From contig JAFYFU010000007.1 in assembly GCA_017543595.1 (NCBI GenBank), forward strand, positions 1 through 53,531: 53,531 nucleotides of DNA. Direction: 5' to 3'. Under the pieces are notes generated by a model. It was not told where the DNA came from and made no database searches. It saw only the letters and a list, made by a program, of their open reading frames with translations. Source of the stretch: Ruminococcus sp. (GTDB taxonomy: Bacteria > Bacillota > Clostridia > Oscillospirales > Ruminococcaceae). This document shows positions 1,709-10,955 of the stretch, piece by piece. Made by a program: the position numbers and the translations under genes. Positions within the stretch are counted from its first letter, which is position 1. Each line of letters opens with the position of its first letter.

Positions 1709-2830
1709 TTATTTTTTGGAGAATTTCTTTGATGATACTATACCTGCCGTACCTGCTGCGATTGCTGCGATTGTAAGTGCAATTACGGGGAATTTATCGC
1801 CTGTCTTGGGAGAATCAGTTGAGGCAGGAGCTTTCTTGACAGCCTGTGTCGCTGTTGTTGTCGTTACAGCCTGAGAAGCTGCTGTTGTATTTGTTGTTTT
1901 CTTGACTTCCGTTGCTTTAACTGTTGTATTTACTGCGGGAGCTGTTGTTGCTGCGGGAGTTGTTACTGCTGTCGGTTCTGTCTGTGAAAGAACTTCAAAT
2001 GTTCCGTCAGCCCATGAAAGTGAGAATGTGCCGTCAGCGTTGTAATTAACAACTGCGTGGCTTCCTCTTGCTGCGCCGATTATGTGAAATTCAAGGTCTG
2101 CGCCGTCAATCGTGTATTCAAATTCACGGGCAGAGCCGTCAAAATCATACATACAGCCGATTGGTTCAATGATGTCAAAGCAATATTTCTTAGAGCCTGC
2201 GGTATTTGTTACGTACCATGTGCCGTGTGCGAGCATGGGCTTATTGTATCTGTTTTCTGTTGTGATTGTGGTAACTTCGGGTTCGATATTAACCGAGGGG
2301 TGTGTTGTGCTGAGTCTTTCGGAGAATCCGTTGTCCCATGCGATTACCATATCATATCCTTCATATGAAACAGTACCTGAAAGTGTTGTGTTGTTGTCGT
2401 AGTAAAATACTACTCTGTTTCCTGCGAAATCATAGCTGAAATAGCTTATATTGCCTGTGCCTTCGTCTGTACAGCTTCCCTGCGCACGGCTTGCGCTGAA
2501 CCAGTAATCTTTTACACCGCTCATTCCGACACTGTACCAGTTGCCCTGAGCAAAGATATTTGAATAGTCGGGAACTTCTGTTGTTTCGGGGGCTTCTGTT
2601 GTTGTTTCAACGCTGTCAACAGGGTTTGTGAAGTATCCGTCTGTTATGATGTCGTAACCGTCAGCGGGTTCAACATAAGCTTCTGCTGCGGCATTTGCTG
2701 CGGCTGCGGCAGCGTCTGCCTGTTCTTTTGTCATTCCGTCATTTGCGGAAGCGGAAATGCTTATCATGCTTGTGATTGTTGTTAAAGCTGCAACAGCCAT
2801 GATTGTTATTTTTGACATTGTTTTTTTCAT
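1709..2830 (-). CDS. SPKTG-anchored surface protein with two GxWY repeat domains
   Basis: This is a secreted, probably cell-wall-attached protein of 373 aa with no function I recognise. Residues 1-30 form a signal peptide ending ASA. An Ala-rich segment follows. Two homologous beta-rich domains of about 85-90 aa (about 91-175 and 198-286) begin with G(N/T)WY and end with a (V/L)xW motif. Then come a Thr/Ala/Pro linker and a C-terminal sorting signal: SPKTG at about 340-344, a hydrophobic helix and a Lys-rich tail. SPKTG resembles the sorting motif used by the C. difficile sortase, so sortase anchoring is inferred. AAAGGAG precedes the ATG. Its two domains are nearly the same as the last two of the 677-aa protein at 7739, so the genes are paralogues. 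The upstream ECF-type motif at 2921-2953 suggests control by the neighbouring sigma factor. Confidence 0.85.
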   Translation of the reverse strand: MKKTMSKITIMAVAALTTITSMISISASANDGMTKEQADAAAAAANAAAEAYVEPADGYDIITDGYFTNPVDSVETTTEAPETTEVPDYSNIFAQGNWYSVGMSGVKDYWFSASRAQGSCTDEGTGNISYFSYDFAGNRVVFYYDNNTTLSGTVSYEGYDMVIAWDNGFSERLSTTHPSVNIEPEVTTITTENRYNKPMLAHGTWYVTNTAGSKKYCFDIIEPIGCMYDFDGSAREFEYTIDGADLEFHIIGAARGSHAVVNYNADGTFSLSWADGTFEVLSQTEPTAVTTPAATTAPAVNTTVKATEVKKTTNTTAASQAVTTTTATQAVKKAPASTDSPKTGDKFPVIALTIAAIAAGTAGIVSSKKFSKK

Positions 2831-2920
2831 AATAATTACTCCTTTAAATTTTTTTCATTAATTTTGTTTATTGGTTTCTGTTTTCATTTTTTTCATATTG
2901 GTTTTATCAACCGTTCTGTT

Positions 2921-2953
2921 TATATATTCGTTCAGACAGACGAAAAAAGGACA
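2921..2953 (-). promoter_or_regulatory. Candidate ECF-sigma promoter, copy A
   Basis: On the minus strand TGTCC, a T-run, 12 bases and CGAATATATA stand about 90 bases upstream of the surface-protein start. The same bipartite motif occurs upstream of the sigma-factor gene, the 6830 gene and the 7739 gene. It does not resemble a sigma-A promoter. Assignment to the local ECF factor is inferred from its recurrence and position. Confidence 0.65.
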
Positions 2954-2980
2954 CGGAAAAAATAAATATTTTCATTTAAC

Positions 2981-3010
2981 AAAAAAATCCCTCACCAAAG
3001 GCAAGGGATT
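2981..3010 (-). terminator. Terminator of the sigma/anti-sigma operon
   Basis: On the minus strand ATCCCT...AGGGAT forms a short hairpin followed by seven T residues, starting a few bases after the anti-sigma stop codon. It separates the sigma/anti-sigma operon from the downstream surface-protein gene. Confidence 0.75.
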
Positions 3011-3013
3011 ATA

Positions 3014-4042
3014 TTATGAACCCGTTTCGGATTCCTGATTAAATGCTTCGTGGAAATCATATCTCGAAAAGATATCAAAGTCCTGCGTGTCGTCCCAGAT
3101 GATAACAAAGTTTTCGTCATCGCAGAAACATATTCTGCCGTTCTTTATAACTTCTGTCTTGGTGCTTTCGGAATGGTTGAAAGTCAATCGGCTGAAAGTC
3201 AGGCTGTCGTCTTCCCTGATATTGAAATCAGCACTGTATGTCATGTCTTTTTCAAGGTTTTCACCGCATATGACACCGTTTTCATAGAAATGATACTTTA
3301 TGAATGTGCCGTTGCTTTCAAGGCAGTACCAGTCGCCTGCGCCTATTATACTTGCAGGTTCTTCCGTTGTCGGCTGTTCGGTGGGAATTTCCTCATCGAG
3401 GATTGAATTATCGGGAATTGAATTTTCGGGAACATACTCCTGAATAATATCTGCCGAATTGTCGGGGATTTCGATATCTTCGGGAATAAATTCGCAGTCC
3501 GTAAATATTTCCGTTTCGGGTTGGACAGTCTCCGCAGTTATATCCGTGACGGCAACTGTTTCCGATACGGGACATTCCATAAAGCTGACATCTGAAATTG
3601 TGGCAGATGATGACAGGGGTTCAATAAGATAGATTTTTGAAAATGATTTCTCAGGCTGTTCAATACTTGTGCTTTCGGTTGTTCTTGCAATTCCCGCACC
3701 GAACATATTATTATTGTTATTCGGCGTAATGTTTATGTTTGCATTTCTGCCTGCATACATCATACAGCCTGCGCCTATGGCAATAAGCAGTATTGCCGCA
3801 ACCGATGACATATATTTCCGCCACAGCGGACGGTGATATATTTCCGTGCCTGTGACAGTCTGCATATCGGATTTTGTATTGTTCACCTTAAAGAATGAAA
3901 CGGGCGTTTTGTGTACGCATAATTTCATAATTCTTTCCCTTGCTGCCCTGTAAAGTGCAGGATACTCCACGGCTATCGTCATGACGGTCTTGTCGTCAAA
4001 CCCGTGTAAATTTTCATATAATATCTTTTCTTCTCTGTCCAT
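3014..4042 (-). CDS. Membrane anti-sigma factor with extracellular GxWY sensor domain
   Basis: This 342-aa single-pass membrane protein lies directly after the ECF sigma gene (53-base gap) and is inferred to be its anti-sigma factor. Residues 1-77 are cytoplasmic and would bind the sigma factor, 78-98 form a transmembrane helix, and 99-232 are an acidic Pro/Thr/Asn-rich extracellular linker. Residues 233-330 form a domain starting GAGDWY and containing VIIWDD near its end. That domain shares the pattern of the repeat domains in the two neighbouring surface proteins (G-x-WY, aromatic Y-x-F, D-x-L-x-F, and a late I-x-W). The ATG at 4042 was preferred over the GTG nine bases earlier because GGAAGG lies 9 bases upstream of it. 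No conventional zinc anti-sigma (HxxxCxxC) motif is seen. The regulatory role rests on synteny and topology. Confidence 0.75.
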   Translation of the reverse strand: MDREEKILYENLHGFDDKTVMTIAVEYPALYRAARERIMKLCVHKTPVSFFKVNNTKSDMQTVTGTEIYHRPLWRKYMSSVAAILLIAIGAGCMMYAGRNANINITPNNNNNMFGAGIARTTESTSIEQPEKSFSKIYLIEPLSSSATISDVSFMECPVSETVAVTDITAETVQPETEIFTDCEFIPEDIEIPDNSADIIQEYVPENSIPDNSILDEEIPTEQPTTEEPASIIGAGDWYCLESNGTFIKYHFYENGVICGENLEKDMTYSADFNIREDDSLTFSRLTFNHSESTKTEVIKNGRICFCDDENFVIIWDDTQDFDIFSRYDFHEAFNQESETGS

Positions 4043-4095
4043 AAGATTCACCCTTCCGTTAAAGAGTGAAAATGGATTTTTTAACTATGCGGAAA

Positions 4096-4659
4096 TTATC
4101 TGTTTTCACTCAATATTTTTCTCAGTTTTTCTCTTGCACGTGTGCTTCTTTTCTGAACGGCATCACGCTTCATATCGAGCTTTTCCGCTATCTTGACGAC
4201 AGTCATTCCGTAAAAATACTGATACATGATAATTTTGGAATCGGGTTCGCCGAGGCTCTGCACGGCTTTCCAGAGTTCTGATTTTTCCATTTTCTTATCG
4301 TTGTCCGCCTCAATGTTTTCCTCTGAAACGGGGACATATGCGTCCTCCTCCTTGTCCAGCGAATCAGATGCATTGTATTTTCTTGAAAGCTGTCTGAAAG
4401 CGTCAATAGCCCTTCTTTTTGAGATAGTGCTGACAAAGCTTTTGAGAGAACCCGTTTCGGCTGCGAATTTCTTTGCATTTGTGAATATTTCCACAAAAAC
4501 ATCGCTTACACAGTCGTCAATGTCTTCCCTGCTGCATGAACTTCCCAGTTTGTTTATAACAATGGCATAAACGAGATTTCCGAAGTTTTTAAATAAGTAT
4601 TCGTATGCCTCTTTTGGTGAACTGTCAAGGATTGCGCTCCATTCGTTGTCAGTCATCAT
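4096..4659 (-). CDS. ECF-type RNA polymerase sigma factor
   Basis: This 187-aa sigma-70-family protein contains only regions 2 and 4, the hallmark of extracytoplasmic-function sigma factors. Region 2 spans about residues 18-95, including the helix around EDIDDCVSDVF and the promoter-melting segment FVSTISKRRAIDAFR. Region 4 spans about 128-185, with the helix-turn-helix around MTVVKIAEKLDMKRDAVQKR. It directs RNA polymerase to a small regulon and is presumably held inactive by the membrane protein encoded downstream. Two ATGs lie in tandem after AGAGGTGG; 4659 is the longer choice and 4656 is equally possible. The candidate motif B at 4681-4713 suggests that it activates its own operon. Confidence 0.9.
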   Translation of the reverse strand: MMTDNEWSAILDSSPKEAYEYLFKNFGNLVYAIVINKLGSSCSREDIDDCVSDVFVEIFTNAKKFAAETGSLKSFVSTISKRRAIDAFRQLSRKYNASDSLDKEEDAYVPVSEENIEADNDKKMEKSELWKAVQSLGEPDSKIIMYQYFYGMTVVKIAEKLDMKRDAVQKRSTRAREKLRKILSENR

Positions 4660-4680
4660 ACCACCTCTTTCAGTGTCTAA

Positions 4681-4713
4681 TATATATTCGTTTTTGTTTG
4701 TAAAAAAGGGACA
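4681..4713 (-). promoter_or_regulatory. Candidate ECF-sigma promoter, copy B (autoregulatory)
   Basis: On the minus strand TGTCCCTTTTTT, 11 bases and CGAATATATA lie about 22 bases upstream of the sigma-factor start. The AT-rich stretch before it also resembles the segment before copies C and D. It would make the sigma/anti-sigma operon self-activating. Confidence 0.65.
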
Positions 4714-4762
4714 GAGAATATAAAAATATTATTTTAATTATATTCCTGTTAAATAATTAAAG

Positions 4763-6571
4763 TCAGTTCAGAACAAGTTCGTCATTGATTATCTGCGGAA
4801 TAAGAGTTTCGGGAGAACCAAGTGATGAATATTCGTACCATTTATATACAGTAAGCTGTCCTGTTTCCTTATCAATCTGGAATTTATAATGTTCACCTGA
4901 CGAACAGTCCAAAATTGAATAGCTTTTATCATTATGCAAATCATAAATAAATATTGTATCCATAGGCATTCCGCTTCCGATAGTTTCGGACAGGCACATT
5001 TCGGGATAGCCGTCATCATTCAGGTCTGCAAAGAAGAAATCTCCGATATATCCTGCGTATTCAAGTATTATATCTTTCGTGCCGTCTGTATAGTATCTGA
5101 TATTTTCTTTCCAGATAAAAGTTTTTTCGGGGAAAGAATTTATTTTAATGCTGTCATTGATAACAGAACCTTTTCCGTCAAAATCCTGTTTCGGAAACCA
5201 CTGAAAAACATCTCCGCTGTTCCATGTTATATATGTATCGTCAAAGGATTCGGGGAGTTTTGAAATAACTCCTGCATCGAAATTCTGTATCGCACCTGCG
5301 TCATTTCCCGTTATTCCGTCACCCGCATTGAAAACATCGGCATTTATTTTTGCGTCATCTGACAGGGGATATTTGCCTGCATTTGCAAGGTACTGCAATA
5401 TCGCAACGGAATCGGAAATGCTTGTATTGTTGTCCATATTGGCATCGCCTGCGAGATATTTGAAGTCAAGTGACCTGAACTTACATTTTTCTATTCCCAT
5501 GGACATAAAGGAAACTGCATACTTTTCAAAGTAAGCCTGTGCGGTTGAATCCGTATGACCGCATATCGTACCCTGAAAGACGTTTACGTGTCCGTCTGCG
5601 ATAACGCCCGTTGAACATATGGTATCATCAGAATCGAAAATTTCGCAGTCGGGATTTTCAATGATTATCTTTTCAAGGTTACTGCACATATTGAAAGCCT
5701 TTTCGCCTATATAGTCTATATAATCATAGACTGTTATATCTCTGAGTCCGCTGTTTGCGAATGTATTTTTTTCGATTCTTGAAACTGACGGGGGGAGGTA
5801 TATATTTTCAAGGGAAGAACAGTTCGAGAATGCACTCTGTCCGATTTCTTTAATATTATATTTCGGCTGACCGTTTTCATATTGTCCATGACCAAAAATG
5901 ACATTTTTAAGGTTCTTACAGCCCATGAAAGCACCATTGCCGATTTTTTCGACAGTTTTGGGAATATATACACTTGTTACATCGGTATCTTTAAAGGCAA
6001 GACCTGCGATTTCCCTGACATTCGGAATATTATATGCGTCCAATGTCTTTGTTGTTGCGTCAATGAGTATGTCATTTACGACTACATAGGGACTTTCGGC
6101 TTGTCTGTCCTTAATCCATTCAGTGCCGTAAAACGCCCACAAACCAACGGAATTTACGCTTTCGGGGATTTCGATGTCCTTTAATTTTTCACAGCCCGCA
6201 AAAGCCATATTTCCCACCGATTTAACGCTGTCGGAAATTATAACGTCCGTAACTTCGGGGAAAGTATAAAATGCATAGTCCGCAATATCCTCCGAACCGT
6301 TTATTATAATTTTTTTGATTTTGTCCTTGTGTTCATACCATTCGGGATAAATTCCCTCTGCGACTGCACTTTTATTATAAGGTGTCATAGTTCCCGTTCC
6401 GTCAATTGTGAATGTTCCGTCAGAATCAAGTGTCCATGAGAGACTCTCCCCACATTCGCCCGAAATTAAATCCTCGGCAGATACACTTGAAATATTGTCT
6501 GTATATATCGGGTAAACTGCACCTGCCGAAATGCACAAAGCCGTAACAGCAGATACAAAATGTTTTAACAT
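4763..6571 (-). CDS. Secreted leucine-rich-repeat protein with internal dockerin
   Basis: This 602-aa exported protein has a signal peptide at about 1-32. A BspA-like (LRR_5) solenoid follows at about 70-345, with repeats such as AFAGCEKLKDIEIPESV. A dockerin module occupies 374-442, with the calcium-loop pattern DANMDNNTSISD and a second, degenerate loop around DVFNAGDGITGND. A C-terminal domain of about 160 aa contains an Asp-rich DLNDDGYPE loop. Dockerins bind cohesins on scaffoldins, so the protein is probably a non-catalytic member of a cellulosome-like complex or a surface adhesin. Its dockerin is internal, whereas most are terminal. It has its own sigma-A-like promoter and is not obviously part of the ECF regulon, although it adjoins the ECF operon. 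The ligand is unknown. Confidence 0.85.
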   Translation of the reverse strand: MLKHFVSAVTALCISAGAVYPIYTDNISSVSAEDLISGECGESLSWTLDSDGTFTIDGTGTMTPYNKSAVAEGIYPEWYEHKDKIKKIIINGSEDIADYAFYTFPEVTDVIISDSVKSVGNMAFAGCEKLKDIEIPESVNSVGLWAFYGTEWIKDRQAESPYVVVNDILIDATTKTLDAYNIPNVREIAGLAFKDTDVTSVYIPKTVEKIGNGAFMGCKNLKNVIFGHGQYENGQPKYNIKEIGQSAFSNCSSLENIYLPPSVSRIEKNTFANSGLRDITVYDYIDYIGEKAFNMCSNLEKIIIENPDCEIFDSDDTICSTGVIADGHVNVFQGTICGHTDSTAQAYFEKYAVSFMSMGIEKCKFRSLDFKYLAGDANMDNNTSISDSVAILQYLANAGKYPLSDDAKINADVFNAGDGITGNDAGAIQNFDAGVISKLPESFDDTYITWNSGDVFQWFPKQDFDGKGSVINDSIKINSFPEKTFIWKENIRYYTDGTKDIILEYAGYIGDFFFADLNDDGYPEMCLSETIGSGMPMDTIFIYDLHNDKSYSILDCSSGEHYKFQIDKETGQLTVYKWYEYSSLGSPETLIPQIINDELVLN

Positions 6572-6619
6572 AATATCATCTCTTTTCCGAATAACCGTGC
6601 AGAAAAAACCTGCAACTTA

Positions 6620-6648
6620 ATTATATCAAATTTTATGCGAAAAATCAA
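6620..6648 (-). promoter_or_regulatory. Sigma-A type promoter of the 602-aa LRR-dockerin gene
   Basis: On the minus strand TTGATT, 17 bases and TATAAT lie about 50 bases upstream of the ATG at 6571. It points away from the ECF motif C at 6735, so the region carries divergent promoters of two kinds. Confidence 0.75.
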
Positions 6649-6693
6649 TAGTAAATTAACATATTTCCGATATTTAAAAAATATTTCAGGAAA

Positions 6694-6747
6694 TTAAGCC
6701 TGTTATATAATTAAAATATTAATTTTTATTTTCTTGTCCCTTTTTTG
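6694..6747 (+). repeat. Promoter-region direct repeat, copy 1
   Basis: About 54 bases beginning TTAAGCCTGTTATATAATT recur almost unchanged at 7587-7641, with one substitution and a one-base length difference. The repeat ends inside the TGTCCCTTTTTT element of the candidate ECF promoters C and D. The segment before copy B on the other strand is a more diverged version. Confidence 0.85.
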
Positions 6748-6768
6748 GTGCGCTCAAACGAATATATA
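6735..6768 (+). promoter_or_regulatory. Candidate ECF-sigma promoter, copy C
   Basis: TGTCCCTTTTTT, 12 bases and CGAATATATA lie about 60 bases upstream of the ATG at 6830. The spacing is one base longer than in copies A, B and D. Confidence 0.65.
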
Positions 6769-6829
6769 ATCATAAAGGTTCAAAAGAACCTATAATAAAT
6801 AAATGAAAAAAAAGAAAGAGGTAGTCATT

Positions 6830-7423
6830 ATGAAAAACAAAAAGAAAATCGCAGTCGCTCTCACAGGTCTCGCAATCATGTCGGCAATGGCAATGCCCGC
6901 CGCAGCAATTTCTGCCTGCGCTTCGGAAAATGCAGTAGTTGAAAGCGTTGAAAACGAACAGAAATCAATAGAACTCAGACTTGAAATATACAGAGATGAA
7001 TATTTTGCAAATTCTCCTTTCACACTTGTCGGAAAAAAGACAGGCAGTGACAGCTACGAAATGATAGGCGATTTCTTACACTATGACGAAAATGCAAAAT
7101 TTGTCGGAACTTTTAATATTCCCGAAAGCTATGATTTGAGTTCGCTTAAAATAGACAGATATTCCATAACTGAGGGAACATTCAAAAACTATGACGAACT
7201 GGAAATCCCCGCTTTTGAAGTCAAGGACGGCAAGGCAACTGTAAAATTCGGTGAAAGATATTCAAAGGACGATGAACTCTATGCGCAGATAATTGACGCA
7301 TACAGCAGAGGCGATTACAGCAGCATTGACCTGAAAGATTTGGTTCACCTGTATGATATAGGCAAAATCGGACCGAACACTCTGGGACAGATGTACGAAA
7401 GAATTGAAATGGGAATTTATTGA
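6830..7423 (+). CDS. Small secreted or lipoprotein-like protein of unknown function
   Basis: This is a 197-aa exported protein that I do not recognise. The N-terminus has a Lys-rich start, a hydrophobic core and AISAC at about residues 26-30. That fits a lipobox (I-S-A-C), so a lipoprotein is possible, as is an ordinary signal peptide. The mature part is charged and mixed alpha/beta, with no catalytic motif seen. An upstream ATG at 6803 is in frame, but the ATG at 6830 is preferred because GAGGT stands 8 bases before it and the protein then starts directly with a signal sequence. It is monocistronic between an ECF-type promoter (copy C) and a strong terminator. This makes it a likely member of the sigma/anti-sigma regulon and the only one without a GxWY domain. 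Confidence 0.75.
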   Translation: MKNKKKIAVALTGLAIMSAMAMPAAAISACASENAVVESVENEQKSIELRLEIYRDEYFANSPFTLVGKKTGSDSYEMIGDFLHYDENAKFVGTFNIPESYDLSSLKIDRYSITEGTFKNYDELEIPAFEVKDGKATVKFGERYSKDDELYAQIIDAYSRGDYSSIDLKDLVHLYDIGKIGPNTLGQMYERIEMGIY

Positions 7424-7438
7424 GTTATCTAATATCAG

Positions 7439-7466
7439 GGCAGGCACTTAAAGCCTGCCTTTTTAT
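7439..7466 (+). terminator. Terminator of the small secreted gene
   Basis: GGCAGGC and GCCTGCC (7439-7459) enclose a short A/T loop and are followed by a T-rich run. It lies 15 bases after the stop codon at 7423. Confidence 0.85.
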
Positions 7467-7476
7467 TATTTAGAAT

Positions 7477-7563
7477 GGGGGGAGCCGCCCTTTCAGGCTT
7501 GCGCTTTCGTTCACTCCGCTACGCTCCGTTCACTTTCAGCGCAAGGGGCGGCTTTTTCCCCCC
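7477..7563. repeat. Long GC-rich imperfect inverted repeat
   Basis: The outer arms GGGGGGAGCCGCCC (7477-7490) and GGGCGGCT plus CCCCCC (7546-7563, with a TTTT bulge) enclose inner arms TTGCGCT and AGCGCAA and a loop rich in CGCTCCGTTCACT-type sequence. It is much more GC-rich than its surroundings. It contains no gene and could be a repetitive palindromic element of the genome. With its neighbours it fills the otherwise gene-free 7424-7738 stretch. Confidence 0.7.
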
Positions 7564-7586
7564 AAGCCCCCCTGATATCTTCTATT

Positions 7587-7641
7587 TTAAGCCTGTTATA
7601 TAATTAAAATATTAATTTTTATTTTTTTTGTCCCTTTTTTG
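7587..7641 (+). repeat. Promoter-region direct repeat, copy 2
   Basis: This is the second copy of the roughly 54-base segment at 6694-6747. It immediately precedes and overlaps candidate ECF promoter D. The identity extends well upstream of the motif, which fits either recent duplication or a conserved upstream activating element. Confidence 0.85.
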
Positions 7642-7661
7642 TCCGCACGAACGAATATATA
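7629..7661 (+). promoter_or_regulatory. Candidate ECF-sigma promoter, copy D
   Basis: TGTCCCTTTTTT, 11 bases and CGAATATATA lie about 78 bases upstream of the ATG at 7739. Spacing matches copies A and B. No sigma-A promoter is visible nearer to the gene. Confidence 0.65.
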
Positions 7662-7738
7662 TTCAGAGCGGTTGATGACCGCCATGAAAATCACTTGAAT
7701 ATAAATCTTATGAAAAAAATTTTTAAGGAGTAATTATT

Positions 7739-9772
7739 ATGAAAAAAACAGTATCTAAAATGGTAATCACAGCTGTCGCAGCTGCTATGACATTCGCAAA
7801 CATGATGAGCGTTTCCGCTTCCGCAAATGACGGTATGCGCTACAACAACAAATCAACGGAAATCGGAACGGCAGGTTCTTCAATAAAGAATTTCGTTTCG
7901 GGTACATGGTATTCATCAGGCACAGCCGAAGGAGTAATGTACTACAATTTCGATTCAAATACAATGACAGGCAATGTTTACATTGAAAATACAGGCAAGA
8001 CCAAAACTTTCACATATTCCTATGACGGATACACACTTTCAATGTACTACGCTGACGGAACAACAGCAAGCGGTACTGTAATCATGAACGGAAATTCAAT
8101 GACTGTTACATGGGCAACAGGCTGTATCGACAATTTCTCAGCAACATACCCCACAGCAAATAACAAGTCAGTTTCCGCAGGTGCTTCAAAAAACCTCCTC
8201 GCATCAGGTACATGGTATTCAATGACTCCCGCAGGTCCGAGAACTTATATATTTGAATACAACATGACAGCAGGCGAATACACAGACGAATATGACGGCA
8301 GAAAGAACAGCTTCACTTATGACCTTAACGGCAATTCTCTCACAATGTACAACAACAAGGCAGGCGTTACTCTCTACGCAACCGTAAATTATGTTGACAG
8401 CGAAACAATAGTTATCAACTGGAATGAATTTTCGGAAACTCTCAAAACTACAAAAGACGCTGCCAAGAAAGCCGCAGAAACAACAACGGCAGTTACTGCT
8501 TCAAATACCGCAAACGTTATCACATCAGGCACATGGTATTCAATGACTCCCGCAGGTCCGAGAACCTATACATTTGAATCAAATGCTCCCTCATGTCAGT
8601 ATACTGACGAATACAGCGGAGAAACAAGCGGTTTCACTTATGACCTCAAAGGCAGTTACCTCACAGCTTACAACAACAAGGCTGGCGTTACTCTCTATGC
8701 AACTGTAAGCTATCCCGACAATGAAACAATAGTTATCAACTGGGACGCTTTTTCGGAAACTCTCAAAACCACAAAAGATGCCGCTAAGAAAGCTGCAAAT
8801 TCTGTAAATATCTTCGCTCAGGGCAACTGGTACACTTCCGGAATGGACGGAATCGTCAACTATTTCTTCAATGCTGATTCCGCAACAGGTACTCGCACCA
8901 ATGAAACAACAGGTTTTTCGGAAAATTTCACTTATGACTTTGACGGAAACAAAATCGTAATGTACTACGGAAACTATTCTGTAACAGGTTATGTTTCATA
9001 CAGCGGATATGATATGATAATTTCTTGGGAAAGCGGATTTTCTGACACACTCTCAACAGTTCACCCCTCAGCAAACGTTGACCCTGTTGTTACCACAGTT
9101 ACAACAGATGACCGCTACAACAAGCCCATGCTCGCACATGGTACATGGTACGCAACAAGCAACGCAGGTATCAGAACTTTCTGCTTTGACCTTATTGAAC
9201 CTGTCGGCTGTCTCTACGACTTTGACGGCTCTGCACTCAACTTTGAATACACTATTGACGGCGCAGACCTTGAATTTCACGTAATCGGCGCAGCAAGAGG
9301 CGAACACGCAACTGTTTCTTACAATTCTGACGGTACATTCTCACTCACATGGGCAAGCGGTCTTTTCGAGACTTTCTCACTGAAACAGCCTGCACCCCAG
9401 ACAACTCCCGCACCTGTTCAGACAGCTCACGCAACTCAGGCAACTCAGGCAGTCCAGACAACAACTGCACCCGTTCAGACAACTCCCGCAACTCAGGCAA
9501 CTCAGGCAGTTCAGACAAAACCTGCACCCCAGACAACTCCCGTAACAACACAGACTGCGGTAATCATCACTCAGAAAGCACAGCAGACAACAGCAGTTCA
9601 GCAGTCACAGACTCAGCAGACAACTCCTGCTCAGTCCGTTAAAAAAGCTCCTGCAAATGCGTCCGAGTCACCCAAGACAGGCGATAACTTCCCTGCCCTC
9701 GCAGTAGCAATAACAGCTCTCGCAGCAAGTGCGGTTTGTGCAGTAACAGCTAAGAAATCATCTAAAAAGTAA
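7739..9772 (+). CDS. SPKTG-anchored surface protein with five GxWY repeat domains
   Basis: This 677-aa exported protein is the enlarged paralogue of the 373-aa protein at 1709-2830. A signal peptide ends at about residue 30. Five tandem domains lie at about 50-137, 151-240, 258-347, 357-440 and 464-550. Each opens with a G(T/N)WY signature and has late W and F positions, which suggests an all-beta, lipocalin-like fold (inference). Domains 2 and 3 are almost identical at the DNA level, 321 bases apart, showing recent duplication. Domains 4 and 5 match the two domains of the paralogue. A Thr/Gln/Pro-rich stalk (551-643) leads to SPKTG at 644-648, a hydrophobic helix and a Lys-rich tail. It is probably sortase-anchored, perhaps with a glycosylated stalk. 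The start follows AAGGAG. The ligand is unknown; it is inferred to belong to the ECF regulon through motif D. Confidence 0.87.
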   Translation: MKKTVSKMVITAVAAAMTFANMMSVSASANDGMRYNNKSTEIGTAGSSIKNFVSGTWYSSGTAEGVMYYNFDSNTMTGNVYIENTGKTKTFTYSYDGYTLSMYYADGTTASGTVIMNGNSMTVTWATGCIDNFSATYPTANNKSVSAGASKNLLASGTWYSMTPAGPRTYIFEYNMTAGEYTDEYDGRKNSFTYDLNGNSLTMYNNKAGVTLYATVNYVDSETIVINWNEFSETLKTTKDAAKKAAETTTAVTASNTANVITSGTWYSMTPAGPRTYTFESNAPSCQYTDEYSGETSGFTYDLKGSYLTAYNNKAGVTLYATVSYPDNETIVINWDAFSETLKTTKDAAKKAANSVNIFAQGNWYTSGMDGIVNYFFNADSATGTRTNETTGFSENFTYDFDGNKIVMYYGNYSVTGYVSYSGYDMIISWESGFSDTLSTVHPSANVDPVVTTVTTDDRYNKPMLAHGTWYATSNAGIRTFCFDLIEPVGCLYDFDGSALNFEYTIDGADLEFHVIGAARGEHATVSYNSDGTFSLTWASGLFETFSLKQPAPQTTPAPVQTAHATQATQAVQTTTAPVQTTPATQATQAVQTKPAPQTTPVTTQTAVIITQKAQQTTAVQQSQTQQTTPAQSVKKAPANASESPKTGDNFPALAVAITALAASAVCAVTAKKSSKK

Positions 9773-9971: not shown

Positions 9972-10955
9972 ATGAATTTCAAAAAAATAATTTCTGCGGT
10001 GCTTGCTGTCTGCCTTGTCGGAACAATATGTACAAATTTCAAAAATACTTCTGATTTCCCGATAATCGCAAATGCGGAAGAAACAGAAGAAGAATACACG
10101 CAAGTTACGGAAGGGATATTTAAATTCGACGTTTATAATGATTACGCAGCCGTAAGCGGGTGCGATACAAATGCAGAGGGTGAAATAACCATTCCTGCCG
10201 AAATAAATGGTGTACCCGTTAAATATATTTTTGACGAAGCGTTTAAGGATTGTAAAGGCTTGACTTCAGTAAATGTCCCTGACAGTATTGAGGCTATTGG
10301 ATATGCATTTTGGTATTGTACAAGTTTAACTTCAATTAACATTCCTGATAGTGTTGTATTCCTTGGTGATGCATTTTTTGGTTGTTCTTCCTTGACTTCA
10401 ATTAACATTCCCAAAAATATTACACGTATTGTAGCCGGTACATTTGACGGTTGTTCTTCTTTAACCTCAGTAGACATTCCTGACAATGTTACGTTCATTG
10501 GAATGTATACATTTCATGGTTGTAATAGTTTGGAAAAAGTAACAGTATTTAATCCAGACTGTGAATTTGATGTTGATGTATTAACCGATTATGACGGAAT
10601 TATCTATGGTTATGAAAACTCAACAGCACAGGCTTATGCTGAAAAATACGGCTATAAATTTGAATCTCTTGGAATATATGAAGAGCAGAAAGAACTCCCT
10701 GTCGGAGATATAAATGACGACAATACAATAGATTCTTCTGACGCTTCCGATGTCCTTGCAATTTATTCAGAACTTTCAACAAAAGGCAAATCGGAAAAAT
10801 TCACTGCTCAGCAAATAAAAGCCGCAGATGTAAACGGGGACAAACAGGCAAATTCCACAGATGCAAGCACTATCCTGCAATACTATGCCCTTTCATCAAC
10901 AAGCGGAACGGAAACTTTTGAAGAATTTCTCGAAAGAACATTAAATAACAAATAA
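9972..10955 (+). CDS. Secreted leucine-rich-repeat protein with C-terminal dockerin
   Basis: This 327-aa exported protein has a signal peptide at about 1-35. Four to five BspA-type LRR_5 repeats follow at about 75-210, each resembling TFHGCNSLEKVTV or SLTSINIPDSV. A C-terminal type I-like dockerin occupies about 238-315, with two canonical calcium loops, DINDDNTIDSSD and DVNGDKQANSTD, each followed by a hydrophobic helix. The dockerin implies attachment to a cohesin-bearing scaffoldin, while the LRR part probably mediates binding. The start follows AAAGGAG. It resembles the LRR core of the 602-aa protein but has a better-preserved dockerin and no C-terminal extension. A parS-like site and a bidirectional terminator follow directly. 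Confidence 0.87.
   Translation: MNFKKIISAVLAVCLVGTICTNFKNTSDFPIIANAEETEEEYTQVTEGIFKFDVYNDYAAVSGCDTNAEGEITIPAEINGVPVKYIFDEAFKDCKGLTSVNVPDSIEAIGYAFWYCTSLTSINIPDSVVFLGDAFFGCSSLTSINIPKNITRIVAGTFDGCSSLTSVDIPDNVTFIGMYTFHGCNSLEKVTVFNPDCEFDVDVLTDYDGIIYGYENSTAQAYAEKYGYKFESLGIYEEQKELPVGDINDDNTIDSSDASDVLAIYSELSTKGKSEKFTAQQIKAADVNGDKQANSTDASTILQYYALSSTSGTETFEEFLERTLNNK

What the first reader, a model, noticed from the sequence alone, without database searches (positions are those of the whole stretch)
1709..9772. ECF sigma regulon in which the anti-sigma ectodomain shares the domain of the surface proteins it may control
The anti-sigma factor (3014-4042) ends in an extracellular domain opening GAGDWY and closing with an I-x-W strand. 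The two SPKTG-anchored proteins nearby are built of two and five copies of a domain with the same landmarks. A recurrent promoter motif precedes the sigma operon and these genes. This implies that the sensor and the surface layer recognise the same ligand, or each other, so the cell measures its own surface layer or a bound substrate. In sigma-I/RsgI systems the anti-sigma factor likewise carries a binding module shared with its targets, but here the sigma factor is of the ECF type and the domain is unfamiliar. The domain similarity was judged by eye.
Basis: partly seen in the sequence, partly recalled or inferred. Interest (0 to 1): 0.86.

Follow-up and report, generated by a model that had tools for sequence, protein, structure and literature searches.

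The report
Sensor and surface proteins share barrel
In a rumen/gut Ruminococcus, a stress-type gene switch senses the outside through a small lipocalin-like barrel, and the cell-surface proteins it appears to turn on are built from repeats of that same kind of barrel, which suggests (but does not prove) that sensor and surface proteins bind the same thing.

Summary
An ECF sigma factor (4096-4659, -), its membrane anti-sigma (3014-4042, -) and two SPKTG proteins with two and five copies of a ~90-residue domain are there. An HMM built from orthologous anti-sigma ectodomains, without the window's own, finds all seven surface repeats (21.5-29.3 bits). Both domains are predicted as the same eight-strand lipocalin-like barrel, so the domain is not unfamiliar. 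With one promoter pattern the genome has 15 sites and its sister species 14, against 0-1 in each of 118 other genomes of the genus. A TGTCC/CGAAT motif precedes sigma in 26 of 31 orthologous loci. So this looks like a real, autoregulated envelope regulon. A third SPKTG protein with the domain has the motif in the sister species. Against a strict 'cell measures its own surface layer' reading: domain-bearing SPKTG proteins were found only in this species and its sister, and the sister has lost the anti-sigma but kept sigma and targets. A shared ligand is inference. Closest known: SigI/RsgI (logic) and VtrC/ToxS (sensory lipocalin-like barrels). New variant of a known kind.

The parts
4096..4659 (-). 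ECF sigma factor, 187 aa
   Evidence: Sigma70_r2 and r4_2 above Pfam cut-offs; only match in this genome at E<=1e-3; the relatives studied here as orthologues are 47-81% identical
3014..4042 (-). membrane anti-sigma factor: N-terminal cytoplasmic part, hydrophobic segment, low-complexity linker, lipocalin-like ectodomain (GTG alternative start at 4051)
   Evidence: N-terminus and hydrophobic segment align with relatives in which hydropathy gives mostly one TM segment; anti-sigma role inferred from position and family
3056..3349 (-). ectodomain: lipocalin-like barrel
4681..4712 (-). putative promoter of the sigma operon (GTCCCTTTTTT-N9-AACGAATATATA)
   Evidence: a TGTCC-N16-21-CGAAT motif precedes sigma in 26 of 31 orthologous loci
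1709..2830 (-). SPKTG-anchored surface protein with two domain copies
2282..2560 (-). surface domain copy 1 of the two-copy protein
1961..2239 (-). surface domain copy 2 of the two-copy protein
2921..2952 (-). putative promoter of the two-copy surface protein
   Evidence: present at the homologous gene in G353
6736..6768 (+). putative promoter of ORF 6803-7423 (spacer one base longer)
6803..7423 (+). small secreted protein (signal peptide by eye) of unknown function, probable regulon member
   Evidence: no Pfam or NCBIfam match at E<=1
6776..6791 (+). 5' UTR hairpin AGGTTC-AAAA-GAACCT
   Evidence: fold -7.3 kcal/mol, z -7.2 against mononucleotide shuffles
7630..7661 (+). putative promoter of the five-copy surface protein
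   Evidence: present at the homologous gene in G353
7668..7682 (+). 5' UTR hairpin GCGGT-TGATG-ACCGC; a hairpin of different sequence lies at about the same place in G353
7739..9772 (+). SPKTG-anchored surface protein with five domain copies
7886..8164 (+). surface domain copy 1 of 5
   Evidence: AlphaFold pLDDT 89.1, eight strands
8192..8470 (+). surface domain copy 2 of 5
8513..8791 (+). surface domain copy 3 of 5
8807..9085 (+). surface domain copy 4 of 5
9125..9403 (+). surface domain copy 5 of 5

Best explanation
An autoregulated ECF sigma / membrane anti-sigma pair controls an envelope regulon of about 15-18 promoters. SHOWN by sequence: sigma class, anti-sigma anatomy, the motif and its conservation, homology of the sensor ectodomain with the repeats of sortase-anchored proteins that carry the motif, and (by prediction) the same lipocalin-like fold. 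INFERRED: that sigma reads the motif and the anti-sigma holds sigma; the ectodomain binds a ligand, most likely a small hydrophobic molecule or a wall/envelope component; binding leads to cleavage of the anti-sigma by regulated intramembrane proteolysis as for RsiV and RsgI; sigma is released and transcribes its own operon and the surface genes. The multi-copy surface proteins then bind the same class of ligand at the wall, as sponge or buffer, so that sensor and effector form a sense-and-sequester loop. In other species of the genus the same sigma has, at the stringency tested, little more than its own operon; the expansion to domain-sharing surface proteins looks specific to this lineage.
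For: Domain homology with controls; same predicted fold and overlapping PDB neighbours, including sensory barrels ToxS (both models) and VtrA/VtrC (surface model) (passages). Motif: 15 sites in G000 and 14 in G353 against 0-1 in each of the other 118 genus genomes (seven with one, 111 with none; control one in all); four of the seven single sites lie 38-43 bp upstream of the sigma orthologue. TGTCC-N16-21-CGAAT before sigma in 26 of 31 orthologous loci, 0 of 620 shuffles. 8 of 14 G353 sites precede a homologue of a gene behind a G000 site, two of the eight leading to the same gene. The domain is rare: 11 copies in six genes of this genome at E<=1e-5 (a twelfth hit, E 0.05, lies in a broken frame), eight of them in the three regulon genes of the window; a third SPKTG protein (G000:C64, its upstream part beyond the contig end) has the motif upstream of its G353 counterpart. 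Of nine exact sites in 16 orthologue genomes, seven are at the sigma operon; the other two precede an SPKTG protein (G308) and, by eye, a wall-binding-repeat secreted protein (G135).
Against: No ligand, no expression data. The shared fold is a superfamily that binds very different ligands. Surface domains form one clade (98/92); the window's anti-sigma domain is a long branch whose position is unresolved. Domain-bearing SPKTG proteins were found in only two genomes, this one and its sister, while 27 of 32 orthologous anti-sigmas carry the domain. Sister G353 keeps sigma and regulon but lacks the anti-sigma at the locus and gave no hit elsewhere. The window's three genes are neighbours, so their joint membership is not three independent events. 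The two structure models share alignment rows, so they are not fully independent; designed barrels rank among their best PDB matches too.
Confidence: 0.5

Rival explanations
1. Envelope-stress ECF system with independent domain recruitment: the lipocalin-like module is a generic surface building block of Ruminococcus. Sensor and surface proteins have it by common descent but bind different things; the regulon is a general wall-repair response.
For: The domain also occurs in secreted proteins that by eye are dockerin + domain + VanY-type carboxypeptidase, in this genome not among the motif sites found, and even in G323 which has no sigma homologue at E<=1e-20; surface domains are their own clade; regulon includes, by eye, a PAP2 phosphatase, small membrane proteins and an SH3-like secreted protein; anti-sigmas of related sigmas in another genus of the family carry M23 and PASTA ectodomains.
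Against: Three of the six genes with the domain in this genome are in the regulon, and the counterpart of a fourth has the motif in the sister species; a random envelope regulon would not be expected to be enriched for a rare domain.
Confidence: 0.36
2. One reading: the anti-sigma ectodomain touches the surface proteins themselves (homotypic contact), so that the cell measures the state of its own surface layer.
For: Shared domain and shared regulon; lipocalin-like sensory domains can form heterodimers, as VtrA/VtrC and ToxR/ToxS (listing, passages).
Against: Orthologous sensors keep the domain in genomes where, in the hits read, no SPKTG protein with the domain was found; G353 keeps the surface proteins without the sensor.
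Confidence: 0.1
3. The promoter motif belongs to another sigma factor, for example a SigI, whose -10 element is also CGAA.
For: SigI promoters have a CGAA -10 tetrad (passages of PMC6056542 and PMC4711584).
Against: SigI -35 is described as C-rich plus an A-tract, here GTCC plus a T-tract; motif counts follow this ECF orthologue across 120 genomes, and the motif sits before the ECF gene itself in 26 of 31 loci. I did not search the genome for SigI.
Confidence: 0.04

Closest known systems
SigI/RsgI biomass-sensing systems of Acetivibrio (Clostridium) thermocellum
   Same: Operon of alternative sigma and membrane anti-sigma; several paralogues with different ectodomains; ectodomain modules related to those of target proteins; autoregulation; -10 CGAA (passages)
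   Different: Here sigma is ECF-type with region 4; the anti-sigma has no Pfam match; ectodomain is lipocalin-like rather than CBM3, PA14 or GH10; -35 is GTCC + T-tract; targets are sortase-anchored and other envelope proteins
SigV/RsiV (ECF30) of Bacillus subtilis
   Same: ECF with a one-TM anti-sigma that is itself a receptor on the outside (passages)
   Different: Lysozyme-binding RsiV with DUF4179; the window's anti-sigma has no DUF4179 match; no domain shared with targets in the passages I read
VtrC / ToxS lipocalin-like sensory barrels of Vibrio
   Different: Two-protein transcription-factor systems in a Gram-negative, not ECF/anti-sigma; sequence relation not tested
Pfam Lipocalin_4 / DUF5640 domains
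   Same: G-x-W start and predicted eight-strand barrel; surface repeat 1 scanned alone passes the Lipocalin_4 cut-off
   Different: The full surface protein, the ectodomains scanned and the window's anti-sigma stay below the cut-offs or give no match

Membership tests
ECF sigma factor with cognate membrane anti-sigma | Only sigma-70 regions 2 and 4, about 190 aa | tested here: met
ECF sigma factor with cognate membrane anti-sigma | Adjacent co-oriented gene for a membrane protein with cytoplasmic N-terminus | tested here: met
   (29 of 32 orthologous loci have such an ORF over 250 aa); anti-sigma function itself not shown
ECF sigma factor with cognate membrane anti-sigma | Autoregulated promoter shared with a regulon | tested here: met
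   by sequence only:
ECF sigma factor with cognate membrane anti-sigma | Signal-dependent proteolysis of the anti-sigma | not testable with these tools
   needs experiment
SigI/RsgI | Anti-sigma with the RsgI N-terminal domain (a Pfam family, recalled) | tested here: not met
   Pfam scan of the anti-sigma at E<=1: 0 families
SigI/RsgI | -35 element C-rich with A-tract | tested here: not met
   matrix of 29 sites: GTCC then T-tract against PMC6056542 passages; the sites were found with patterns holding GTCC and Ts
SigI/RsgI | -10 element CGAA | tested here: met
   CGAAT in 29 of 29 sites, but the sites had been found with patterns holding it; also in 26 of 31 upstream regions
SigI/RsgI | Ectodomain module shared with regulon products | tested here: met
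   analogous, with a lipocalin-like module:
Lipocalin-like (calycin) barrels | N-terminal G-x-W | tested here: met
   all eight window copies; over the 31 rows the W, not the G, reaches 90%
Lipocalin-like (calycin) barrels | Eight-strand antiparallel barrel | tested here: met
   predicted models only
Lipocalin-like (calycin) barrels | Curated Pfam cut-off passed | tested here: inconclusive
   surface repeat 1 alone 24.0 against 22.4; full five-copy surface protein 19.6; anti-sigma no match
Lipocalin-like (calycin) barrels | Ligand binding in the barrel | not testable with these tools
   needs experiment
RsiV / DUF4179 anti-sigmas | DUF4179 | tested here: not met
   no match for the window anti-sigma at E<=1; matches far below the cut-off in two distant relatives, L111 and L118

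The most novel reading that the evidence does not exclude
Ruminococcus and related genera carry a large, modular ECF/anti-sigma sensor array (21 or more sigma relatives in one genome) with exchangeable ectodomains, the ECF counterpart of SigI/RsgI. In this member the anti-sigma uses a lipocalin-like ligand-binding barrel, and its regulon deploys multi-barrel sortase-anchored proteins that bind the same ligand, closing a sense-and-sequester feedback loop on the cell wall.
Probability: 0.35. Interest if true: 0.78.

Novelty: new variant of a known kind. Interest (0 to 1): 0.62.

Why it matters
It extends the principle that an anti-sigma factor carries a module of its own targets from SigI/RsgI to ECF systems and to a lipocalin-like barrel. 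It gives a concrete promoter-defined regulon, and orthologues of the sensor in R. flavefaciens FD-1 and XPD3002, in which an unknown envelope signal of gut and rumen bacteria can be looked for: sensor and effectors can be purified as small domains and screened for a common ligand. It also points to an array of related ECF/anti-sigma pairs in this bacterial family, with M23, PASTA, DUF4367 and lipocalin-like ectodomains, for which my literature searches found no description.

Tried and rejected
Considered and set aside: chance similarity (2000 shuffles; reversed and N-terminal profile controls); chance promoter (reversed-pattern controls and shuffles); an unfamiliar fold. A profile search of PDB sequences with A1 gave only weak, mostly immunoglobulin and spike matches (best E 0.0049), which I regard as noise. 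The cohesin-like look of one relative's ectodomain (L093) found only a weak match to scaffoldin C (E 0.091) and no Pfam family. Foldseek 'pdb' itself could not be run; only the VIA-align second look was obtained. Site C48:7966 looks spurious. A loose TG..C/CGAnT pattern before the more distant sigma relatives was only some three times background (19 of 41 against a shuffled rate of 0.16); a stricter TGTCAC type gave 7 of 41 against 0.004. A crude count of hydrophobic N-termini among window ORFs (12 of 42) was not used.

Rows dropped and parts given: three of the 32 orthologous loci had no downstream membrane-protein ORF over 250 aa and were left out (G353, G369, G377), and three loci were added, giving 32; 15 of these were also seeds of the HMM, and five (L085, L193, L197, L204, L205) had no hit. 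In one search one locus without enough upstream DNA was left out (31 of 32). In one search five weak domain halves were dropped of 64, and the G353 five-copy protein was missed by the script, so it is not in the tree. One search was given 16 genomes and 26. Of the domain hits, those at G337:C3, G353:C120, G390:C95 and G304:C7 were not read. Of 39 anti-sigma ORFs listed, 20 were given to Pfam.

Literature: searches (open-licence library only) listed no paper whose title or abstract start describes these Ruminococcus ECF systems. I read search listings only, except passages of PMC6066255, PMC6056542, PMC4711584 and PMC9214523. The ECF re-classification paper (NAR 2021, recalled) is not held, so the ECF group number is unknown.


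Full report
What is there. On the minus strand an ECF sigma factor (4096-4659) is followed by a membrane anti-sigma (3014-4042 or 4051) and, behind its own promoter motif, an SPKTG-anchored protein (1709-2830). On the plus strand lie a small secreted protein (6803-7423) and a larger SPKTG-anchored protein (7739-9772). Sigma is ECF-type. It is the only match of its kind in this 2.4-Mb genome at E<=1e-3, although 105 of 120 sampled genomes of the genus have a relative at E<=1e-20, one of them 21.

The shared domain. All eight window copies start G-x-W; W8, F22, G30, F39 and W86 are nearly invariant over 31 rows. An HMM of the repeats prefers the real tail (14.7 bits) to 2000 shuffles (best 9.8). 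The stronger test uses orthologues. Of 32 orthologous anti-sigmas 27 carry the domain (15 of them seeds of the HMM, five without a hit), some in two or three copies, and the window's anti-sigma is hit at 19.4 bits. This HMM, which does not contain the window's anti-sigma, finds each of the seven repeats (21.5-29.3 bits), and profile-profile comparison gives Prob 98.2 with clean controls. The window's single anti-sigma sequence against the repeat profile is not significant on its own (Prob 1.5), so the link runs through the orthologues.

The regulon. GTCCCTTTTT-N11-ACGAATATATA occurs 18 times in the genome with up to three mismatches (reversed control 2). With a slightly different pattern over 120 genus genomes, G000 has 15 sites and G353 14; seven genomes have one and 111 none, and the control found one in all. 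Four of the seven single sites lie 38-43 bp upstream of the sigma orthologue. With the orthologues' own spelling, 9 of 16 genomes have one site each: seven at their sigma operon, one about 50 bp before the likely start of an SPKTG-anchored protein (G308) and one about 30 bp before a secreted protein that by eye has wall-binding repeats (G135); 7 of 16 have none. TGTCC-N16-21-CGAAT lies in the stretch from 220 bp upstream to 40 bp into the sigma match in 26 of 31 orthologous loci and in 0 of 620 shuffles. By eye, 12 of the 18 first genes in G000 encode secreted or membrane proteins, one is the sigma operon and five are unclear, one of these probably spurious. 8 of 14 G353 sites precede a homologue of a gene behind a G000 site, two of the eight leading to the same gene.

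How special is the sharing. The domain is rare: 11 copies in six genes of this genome at E<=1e-5. These are the anti-sigma, the two SPKTG proteins, a third SPKTG protein cut off by the end of contig C64, a protein that by eye is dockerin + domain + VanY-type carboxypeptidase (C81), and a large protein (C106). The G353 counterpart of the third SPKTG protein has the motif upstream. In other genomes of the genus the domain sits in the anti-sigma and, in several, in the same kind of dockerin-VanY protein, also in G323 which lacks the sigma at E<=1e-20. In the census, 17 of 18 genomes with the sigma orthologue and 3 of 8 without a close one have the domain at E<=1e-5. Surface domains form one clade (98/92). 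The window's anti-sigma domain is a long branch; joining it to them is not rejected (p 0.198) nor shown. The pairing of sensor and domain-sharing surface proteins thus looks like a feature of this species and its sister, built on a conserved lipocalin-like sensor.

A result against the strong reading. In G353 the stretch between sigma and the two-copy surface gene lacks the anti-sigma gene, and the sigma's own promoter motif is gone too, with well-matching flanks. A search of that genome (81% complete) gave no anti-sigma hit at E<=0.1; the same query does hit its own genome and six others. The surface genes and their promoters remain. The surface proteins therefore do not seem to need this sensor for their upkeep in evolution.

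The wider family. Anti-sigmas beside more distant relatives of sigma, mostly from other genera of the same family, keep a similar N-terminal part and hydrophobic segment but carry other ectodomains: M23 peptidase (1.5e-23), PASTA (5.1e-19), DUF4367 (1.1e-10), and many without a family (20 of 39 scanned). This resembles the SigI/RsgI array of A. thermocellum (passages of PMC4711584 and PMC6056542) in logic, with another sigma class. The searches listed under Tried and rejected showed no paper on it.

Judgement. Observation confirmed; regulon and homology solid by sequence; shared ligand a reasonable but untested inference; direct measurement of the surface layer unlikely. New variant of a known kind.

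Noticed in passing
6776-6791, 7668-7682, and regulon leaders in L033-L041 and L169-L177: Many regulon transcripts begin with a short hairpin a few bases after the -10 element (19 of 29 leaders with z of -2 or lower against mononucleotide shuffles); the stem sequence differs between genes and between the two sister species while the position stays, possibly an mRNA-stabilising 5' hairpin.
   Followed up: partly
L170 (G353:C104) against window 2701-4800: The sister species lacks the anti-sigma gene and the sigma's own promoter motif at this locus, with sigma and the downstream regulon promoter kept.
   Followed up: partly
L086-L120: Large family of related ECF/anti-sigma pairs in this bacterial family with exchangeable ectodomains (M23, PASTA, DUF4367, others); one genome of the window's genus has 21 sigma relatives at E<=1e-20.
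   Followed up: partly
L093:6519-7793: One related anti-sigma has an ectodomain that looks cohesin-like by eye; only a weak match to scaffoldin C (E 0.091).
   Followed up: partly
L218, L323, L332, L334-L337: Secreted proteins that by eye are dockerin, one to three of the lipocalin-like domains and a VanY-type carboxypeptidase, several lying behind what looks like nadB; a hint that the domain works at the cell wall.
   Followed up: partly
L037 (G000:C109), behind the site at 54513: Three successive lipoproteins follow a regulon gene and may be cotranscribed with it; one, scanned with a mistyped start, passes Lipocalin_4 (26.2 against 22.4).
   Followed up: no
4763-6571 and 9972-10955: Two LRR_5 proteins lie among and beside the regulon genes; the second has a dockerin, the first a dockerin-like stretch by eye.
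   Followed up: no
L236 (JAMPEF010000001.1): Record titled Alistipes senegalensis carries this Ruminococcus-type locus, probably mislabelled.
   Followed up: no
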